A stretch of DNA of 27,030 bases from a bacterium (GTDB taxonomy: Bacteria; CG2-30-53-67; CG2-30-70-394), in NCBI GenBank assembly GCA_024278555.1, contig JAJRSX010000055.1, forward strand, positions 1-27,030, given 5' to 3'. Below, in pieces: positions 8,131 to 27,030 of the stretch. Made by a program: the position numbers and the translations under genes. The notes below the pieces were generated by a model. That model was given only the letters and a program-made list of their open reading frames with translations. It was not told where the DNA came from and did no database searches. Each line of letters begins with the position of its first letter. The stretch's first letter is position 1.

Positions 8131-8159
8131 GAACGGGGGGTGGGAGGCGAGTGGAGTTT

Positions 8160-8194
8160 TCAACGCAAAGGCGCAAAGAGGCCAGGGCGCAAAG
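8160..8194 (+). repeat. Dispersed repeat module, GCAAAGGCGCAAAG type
   Basis: This 35-base module begins TCAACGCAAAGGCGCAAAG and differs at one base from the minus-strand copy at 2937-2971. A shorter related string, CGCAAAGACGCC, is at 8271-8282. Confidence 0.7.
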
Positions 8195-8397
8195 GGGGAG
8201 AGGTGTGGGGGGCATGGGGTCACCGGTGGTGGGGCGGAAGAGCTAATCGGCCTGGAAGGCAAGTTCCACCGCAAAGACGCCAAGATCGCGAAGGGGGAGT
8301 CAGAGCGGCAGATCGGTGTCAACGCGGCGCGAGGTGGGCTGGGAGGCAGGTGGGTTTTGAGGAGGGGAGGGGGGCGGGGAGTCGGGTGTCACTGGTG

Positions 8398-8427: not shown

Positions 8428-8456
8428 GGCCAGGAAGGCCGGGGCTCACCACAGAG
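8428..8456 (+). repeat. Dispersed repeat module, GGCCAGGAAGGCC/CACCACAGAG
   Basis: 28 of 29 bases match the reverse complement of 2811-2839. In this copy the CACCACAGAGA string continues into the 96-bp structured repeat instead of into CACAGAGG, so the repeat appears interrupted at that point. Confidence 0.7.
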
Positions 8457-8541
8457 ATGGGATGAGGAGGCCGCTCTCCTCGCGAGCTCAGGTTCTAACC
8501 TGGCTCAATGCTAACCACGGGCTCGGAGCCCACAAGCAAAG
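8446..8541 (+). repeat. 96-bp structured repeat, copy 1 (no ORF attached)
   Basis: This segment is identical to 26903-26998 except for A/G at 8453/26910. It can form three successive hairpins. H1 is GAGGAG with CTCCTC around a 6-base loop (8464-8481). H2 is GAGCTCAGGTT with AACCTGGCTC, with one bulged base (8484-8506). H3 is GGGCT with AGCCC (8519-8531). In copy 2 the identical bases run to within three bases of the end of the ribosome binding site of an ORF. Here the ORF is missing and a TGGGGTCA array follows at once. It is best read as the end of a mobile or RNA-structured element; the class is undetermined. Confidence 0.85.
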
Positions 8542-8610
8542 TGGGGTCACATTGGGGTCATCACATTGGGGTCAGGCTTGCAAACTTGCAAGTTTGCAAG
8601 CCTGACCCCA
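8542..8610. repeat. TGGGGTCA array ending in a 44-bp perfect palindrome
   Basis: TGGGGTCA occurs at 8542, 8553 and 8567. The third copy opens a perfect inverted repeat at 8567-8610 whose half begins TGGGGTCAGGCTTGCAAACT. TGGGGTCA/TTGCAAG strings of this sort resemble REP-type palindromes linked to REP-associated tyrosine transposases in proteobacteria (resemblance from memory, not searched). No transposase gene is present in the window. The palindrome is about 100 bases before the comM start and could form a cruciform or an mRNA hairpin. Confidence 0.8.
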
Positions 8611-8704
8611 GGGGAGCTCCCCGACGCCCTTGCAATCGGCGGCCACCTCGGCGAGCCTCGCGGTGGCCCGTTGGGTCGGCCCAGGAGGGCCGGCGGTGGC
8701 TCAT

Positions 8705-26819: not shown

Positions 26820-26902
26820 ATCAGCGGAAATAGCGATGCAGGCCAAGTACGGCGTCGCTCCACGCCTCGGCTGGGAGGTGGAGGGCTCCCGGAAGGGATT
26901 TT

Positions 26903-26998
26903 TCACCACGGAGATGGGATGAGGAGGCCGCTCTCCTCGCGAGCTCAGGTTCTAACCTGGCTCAATGCTAACCACGGGCTCGGAGCCCACAAGCAAAG
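26903..26998 (+). repeat. 96-bp structured repeat, copy 2 (leader of a truncated ORF)
   Basis: Identical to 8446-8541 except at 26910. The three hairpins are at 26921-26938, 26941-26963 and 26976-26988. The identity ends at AAGCAAAG, where the ribosome binding site AAAGGAG (26995-27001) of the following ORF begins. Upstream DNA of the two copies is unrelated apart from the TCACCAC(A/G)GAGA string. This copy is probably the intact left end or leader of the element. Confidence 0.85.
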
Positions 26999-27008
26999 GA
27001 GAGCGACC

Positions 27009-27030
27009 ATGAAGCAGGCTACCACGCAGA
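27009..27030 (+). CDS. Start of an unidentified ORF, cut by the window edge
   Basis: ATG at 27009 reads MKQATTQ to the window end. AAAGGAG seven bases upstream is a strong ribosome binding site. Seven residues are not enough to name a family. Its position directly behind the duplicated 96-bp structured leader suggests that it encodes the mobility or effector protein of that element, for example a transposase or reverse transcriptase. That is inference. Confidence 0.6.

What the first reader, a model, noticed from the sequence alone, without database searches (positions are those of the whole stretch)
26903..27030. Duplicated three-hairpin leader in front of an unseen ORF: possible uncharacterised mobile or RNA-guided element
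96 bases (26903-26998) occur again at 8446-8541 with one mismatch, although the 18 kb between them shows no recent duplication. The conserved part holds three consecutive stems (GAGGAG/CTCCTC; GAGCTCAGGTT/AACCTGGCTC; GGGCT/AGCCC). In this copy it runs into the ribosome site of an ORF (MKQATTQ...) that leaves the window. Near-identity in non-coding DNA with conserved pairing suggests recent mobility or a functional RNA. Known systems with structured RNA beside the enzyme gene include IS110-type elements with bridge RNA, group II introns and retrons; none can be chosen from seven residues.
Basis: partly seen in the sequence, partly recalled or inferred. Interest (0 to 1): 0.85.

Follow-up and report, generated by a model that had tools for sequence, protein, structure and literature searches.

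The report
Left end of an IS1111-type transposon
The repeated stretch is the left end of a multi-copy jumping gene of the IS1111 group (IS110 family, whose known members aim themselves with a guide RNA); its hairpins probably form the folded leader that hides the transposase's ribosome site, so it is a new member of a known kind rather than an unknown system.

Summary
In detail: 26903-26998 recurs at 8446-8541 with one mismatch (26910), which lies in target DNA outside the element. About 25 copies occur in the genome, mostly at contig ends. The ORF is an IS110-family transposase. I also found the matching right end (14 places). It shares a 15-bp subterminal inverted repeat with the left end (ATGAGGAGGCCGCTC), with 7 bp outside it on the left, 3 bp on the right and an AG core: the published IS1111 signature. 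Targets are a host intergenic repeat (CACCACAG-AG-ACACAGAGG; 72 matches to its right half). So this is a mobile element of a family known to be RNA-guided. The 96-mer itself is most likely not the guide RNA, which in IS1111 elements lies in the long right end; no guide match above chance was found in either end. The left end folds into a three-way junction whose outer stem pairs the inner part of the terminal repeat with the Shine-Dalgarno region. The same outer stem, with different sequences, precedes relatives' transposases in five other genomes. I infer a translation-limiting leader, as shown for ISPpu9. New member of a known kind.

The parts
26912..27030 (+). Left end and first codons of an IS1111-group insertion sequence (element continues past the window)
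   Evidence: Element/target boundary set by comparing copies with empty target repeats
26903..26911 (+). Left half of the target repeat (TCACCACGG), host DNA outside the element; holds the single mismatch (26910)
   Evidence: Empty sites read TTTCACCACAG-AG-ACACAGAGG; mismatch position
26912..26918 (+). Seven bases outside the inverted repeat (AGATGGG), beginning with the AG core shared with the target
   Evidence: Left and right junctions compared; 7/3 rule in PMC11187229
26919..26933 (+). Subterminal inverted repeat ATGAGGAGGCCGCTC; exact reverse complement in the right end
   Evidence: Right-end copies
26926..26936 (+). 5' arm of the outer leader stem (overlaps the inverted repeat)
   Evidence: Folds in own and relatives; pair counts
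26941..26963 (+). Leader hairpin 1: 4-bp stem, bulged T, inner stem
26976..26988 (+). Leader hairpin 2 (GGGCTCGGAGCCC)
26998..27008 (+). 3' arm of the outer leader stem, covering the Shine-Dalgarno sequence (AAAGGAG 26995-27001)
   Evidence: Predicted pairing probability near 1
27009..27030 (+). Start of the IS110-family transposase ORF (MKQATTQ...)
   Evidence: Continued on C81 and C16; NF033542 E 2.9e-6, P0002 alignment
8455..8541 (+). Solo left end of the same element, truncated before the start codon; immobile remnant
   Evidence: left target half at 8446-8454

Best explanation
The repeat is the left end of a multi-copy insertion sequence of the IS1111 group (IS110 family). Shown: both ends, the 15-bp subterminal inverted repeat with 7 and 3 bp outside it, the AG core, insertion into a host intergenic repeat, and a following IS110-family transposase ORF. 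Inferred from published IS1111 elements: excision as a circle, a promoter formed where right and left ends join (right-end TTGACA, 18 bp, GAAGAT across the junction; the second hexamer is weak), and a guide RNA encoded in the long right end that directs insertion. Inferred from structure and from ISPpu9: the 83-nt leader folds into a three-way junction whose outer stem pairs the inner part of the left inverted repeat with the Shine-Dalgarno region and keeps transposase translation low. The window's first copy (8455-8541) is a 3'-truncated, immobile left end.
For: About 25 left ends and 14 right ends in one genome, mostly at contig ends. Exact 15-bp inverted repeat and the 7/3-bp asymmetry given for IS1111 elements in PMC11187229. 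Empty target repeats show the insertion point. Transposase: NF033542 E 2.9e-6; two-block match to P0002, which itself matches PF01548 and PF02371. Homologous left ends in G013, G124 and G283, each in front of an IS110-type ORF or its start and each in different flanking DNA. Outer stem kept with changed sequence in G283, G013, G092, G064 and, in prediction, IS4321. Leader-controlled translation is demonstrated in ISPpu9.
Against: No complete copy is assembled, so left and right ends are joined by their shared inverted repeat and shared target, not by one contig. The host genome has no hit to the transposase Pfam models. The NCBIfam score is below its curated cut-off. No guide sequence above chance was found in the right end. 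Formal covariation rests on few, related rows. The leader function is untested.
Confidence: 0.85

Rival explanations
1. The left-end hairpins are themselves the bridge/seek RNA, as in the IS110 group where the guide lies upstream of the transposase.
For: Structured non-coding DNA upstream of the ORF; the left end holds ACCACGG, which matches the target's left half CACCACGG. A few IS1111-group elements have an upstream non-coding region.
Against: The match is not above chance (39 of 300 shuffles as long), and G013 has the same AACCACGGGCTC beside a different flanking sequence. The left end is only about 97 bp, while right ends are at least 230 bp here; the long inverted repeat marks the IS1111 group, whose guide is normally in the right end. 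No two-loop bridge architecture is predicted.
Confidence: 0.1
2. Both ends are DNA-level recognition structures only, and the leader stem is a by-product of the inverted repeat with no role in expression.
For: The 5' arm of the stem overlaps the inverted repeat, so DNA constraint alone could conserve that arm; several IS110-family elements lack the stem.
Against: The 3' arm next to the ATG is outside the repeat yet changes together with the 5' arm.
Confidence: 0.25
3. A group II intron, retron or other reverse-transcriptase element with a structured RNA.
Against: No Rfam family in the window at gathering scores; the ORF is an IS110-type transposase; terminal inverted-repeat geometry.
Confidence: 0.01

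Closest known systems
IS1111-group insertion sequences (IS4321/IS5075, ISEc11, ISPa11; PMC11187229)
   Same: DEDD transposase family; long subterminal inverted repeat; 7 bp outside on the left and 3 bp on the right; insertion into one specific, often repetitive target; short left end, long right end
   Different: Different target (CACCACAG-AG-ACACAGAGG intergenic repeat); guide RNA not shown here; many truncated solo ends; transposase only about a third identical over the aligned block to the nearest full-length relative found
ISPpu9 (IS110 family; PMC8450116)
   Same: Transposase leader predicted to bury the ribosome-binding site; inserted in host repeats
   Different: ISPpu9 has a 245-nt leader and two small RNAs (Asr9, Ssr9), and was tested experimentally; here the leader is about 83 nt and untested
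IS621 bridge RNA (IS110 group, PMC11208160)
   Same: Same recombinase family; structured RNA in a non-coding end
   Different: IS621 has a long left end with a two-loop bridge RNA, and its group has only 2-3 bp repeats; here the left end is about 97 bp with a 15-bp repeat

Membership tests
IS1111 group (IS110 family) | Subterminal inverted repeat of 7-17 bp | tested here: met
   15 bp, ATGAGGAGGCCGCTC / GAGCGGCCTCCTCAT
IS1111 group (IS110 family) | 7 bp outside the repeat on the left, 3 bp on the right | tested here: met
   AGATGGG and GGA, judged against empty target repeats; rule from PMC11187229
IS1111 group (IS110 family) | DEDD transposase with Transposase_20 domain | tested here: inconclusive
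   Own copies truncated or internally deleted: NF033542 E 2.9e-6 below cut-off, no Pfam hit; full-length relative P0002 has both domains
IS1111 group (IS110 family) | Sequence-specific target, often a genomic repeat | tested here: met
   Many ends interrupt one intergenic repeat family at the same position
IS1111 group (IS110 family) | Long non-coding right end encoding the guide RNA | tested here: inconclusive
   Right end at least 230 bp without an identifiable coding frame, but stop codon not located; no guide match above chance
IS1111 group (IS110 family) | Circular intermediate with a junction promoter | not testable with these tools
   TTGACA-18-GAAGAT would form at the junction, second hexamer only 3 of 6
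IS110 group proper (IS621-like) | Long left end with bridge RNA, repeats of 2-3 bp | tested here: not met
   Left end about 97 bp; 15-bp repeat
Group II intron / retron | Reverse-transcriptase ORF and family RNA | tested here: not met
   ORF is IS110-type; no Rfam match at gathering scores in the window

The most novel reading that the evidence does not exclude
In this branch of IS1111 elements the left subterminal inverted repeat has two jobs: as DNA it marks the element end for the recombinase, and as RNA its inner part forms one arm of a conserved three-way-junction leader that hides the transposase ribosome site, so end recognition and expression control are locked together.
Probability: 0.4. 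Interest if true: 0.5.

Novelty: new member of a known kind. Interest (0 to 1): 0.3.

Why it matters
It settles an apparent unknown as an RNA-guided-type insertion sequence that targets a high-copy intergenic repeat, and gives a testable link between the end repeat and translation of the recombinase. Relatives with the same left end have different flanking DNA in each genome, which makes this group useful for learning guide-target rules once full-length right ends are available.

Tried and rejected
Rfam on the window and on end sequences: nothing at gathering scores, only chance-level hits otherwise. Transposase Pfam models in the host genome: none. P0001 in genome contigs, and P0002 and the left-end pattern in viral contigs: no relatives; the left end in plasmids: none. 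The left-end pattern in genome contigs found the G013 contig plus two apparently chance matches. Right ends of G013, G124 and G283 by exact pattern: only left ends and chance hits, so the guide-target covariation test could not be done. Guide search in both ends: not above chance. Pairing of the inverted repeat with the Shine-Dalgarno region as a rule of all IS110-family leaders: rejected; IS4321 and the Pantoea element show an outer stem ending next to the ATG, most of the alphaproteobacterial elements examined do not. A covariance model was not built, because MAFFT misaligns the hairpins of the divergent leaders.

Full report
Observation. The 96 bases at 26903-26998 recur at 8446-8541 with one difference, at 26910. 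The same sequence is present about 25 times in the host assembly, which is in 211 contigs, and most copies sit at a contig end. That is the pattern of a collapsed multi-copy mobile element, and the window itself ends there for that reason. The one other genome of the genus that was searched (G001) has no copy.

Identity of the ORF. Contig C81 continues the ORF: MKQATTQTIGVDVSDRKSRICVLPLELRDRDTQIHLAQIRSRAMPVATRTKLVNHVRGQVKSLGYRV..., and C16 carries a copy further. NCBIfam identifies the joined fragment as IS110 family RNA-guided transposase (NF033542, E 2.9e-6, below the curated cut-off). Against the full-length relative P0002 from genome G124, residues 1-23 align with 1-23 and 24-114 with 115-204, so the assembled copies that extend this far lack 91 codons in frame, most of the DEDD domain. 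No intact transposase is present in the assembly; intact copies, if any, would be in unbinned repeat contigs.

Ends and target. I searched the host genome for the sequence that follows truncated copies and found a family of intergenic inverted repeats (72 matches to CACAGAGGRCACAGAGAA with up to one mismatch), many uninterrupted, reading TTTCACCACAG-AG-ACACAGAGGGCACAGAGAAC. Several are interrupted by ...TTGACAGGGAGCGGCCTCCTCAT-GGA-AG, which occurs in 14 places, most at contig ends: the right end. Its GAGCGGCCTCCTCAT is the exact reverse complement of ATGAGGAGGCCGCTC at 26919-26933. Seven bases (AGATGGG) lie outside the repeat on the left and three (GGA) on the right. PMC11187229 gives just these lengths for IS1111 elements. 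Hence 26903-26911, including the lone mismatch, is target, and the element starts at 26912.

Leader. From 26926 to 27008 the RNA is predicted to form a three-way junction: an outer stem pairing GGCCGCTCTCC with GGAGAGCGACC next to the ATG, and two hairpins, the first with a 4-bp stem, a bulged T and an inner stem. The leader is more stable than shuffles (z -3.5), less so with flanks added (z -1.2). The outer stem precedes IS110-type ORFs, or their first codons, in G013, G124, G283, G092 and G064, with stem sequences that differ but still pair, and the hairpins recur in most of them. On the alignable set the outer stem is paired in 94% of cells, against 36-53% when slid, with one pair seen as C-G, G-C and A-U; seven of the eleven pairs never vary and say nothing. 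Rows are few and related, so formal covariation is modest; the stronger argument is the preserved architecture in G092 and G064, where the stem sequence is different throughout. The stem covers the Shine-Dalgarno sequence. ISPpu9 shows experimentally that such a leader limits transposase translation (PMC8450116). IS4321 also pairs its left inverted repeat with its Shine-Dalgarno region in the prediction, but most of the alphaproteobacterial IS110-family elements examined do not, so this is a feature of part of the family.

Guide RNA. In IS1111 elements the guide is usually encoded downstream of the transposase. I looked for target matches in both ends and found none above chance. The location of the guide is therefore inferred by membership, not shown here.

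Truncated copies. About ten copies stop at different points. In C16, C174, C36, C68 and C125 the break follows an AG and is joined to sequence that is, or resembles, the right target half; three of these break at the same internal GACCGGAAGAG, which resembles the true right end CATGGAAG. Recombinase use of pseudo-right-ends, or deletion at short repeats, would both explain this. The window's copy at 8446-8541 and those in C26, C92, C98 and C190 end at unrelated sequence.

Verdict.

Noticed in passing
L028 (G000:C48, about 29764-29882): A palindromic mini-element of about 120 bp: a left end followed by its own inverted copy (perfect inverted ends of about 30 bp), flanked on both sides by left-type target halves. 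It looks like a fold-back derivative.
   Followed up: partly
L029 (C174), L066 (C16), L026 (C36), L025 (C68), L021 (C125): 3'-truncated left ends whose break follows an AG and joins a right-target-like sequence; three independent copies break at the same GACCGGAAGAG. Possible pseudo-right-end recombination.
   Followed up: partly
L110 (C4), L153 (C47), L152 (C129): Solo right ends truncated at their inner side, the mirror image of the solo left ends.
   Followed up: no
Genome-wide, e.g. L101, L102, L104; near 26840-26911 in the window: High-copy intergenic inverted repeat TTTCACCACAGAGACACAGAGGGCACAGAGAAC...; origin and function unknown. It is the element's target.
   Followed up: partly
L182-L186 (G283): A related element in another genome inserted after (GATTAC)n repeats; same left-end motif, different target.
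   Followed up: partly
window 8541-8625: Directly after the truncated left end: TGGGGTCACATTGGGGTCA... and a perfect palindrome-like GGGGTCAGGCTTGCAAACTTGCAAGTTTGCAAGCCTGACCCC, resembling a REP-type repeat.
   Followed up: no
window 8150-8330: Further degenerate tandem motifs of the CGCAAAGGCGCAAAGAGG / CCGCAAAGACGCCAAGA type in the intergenic region upstream of the first copy.
   Followed up: no
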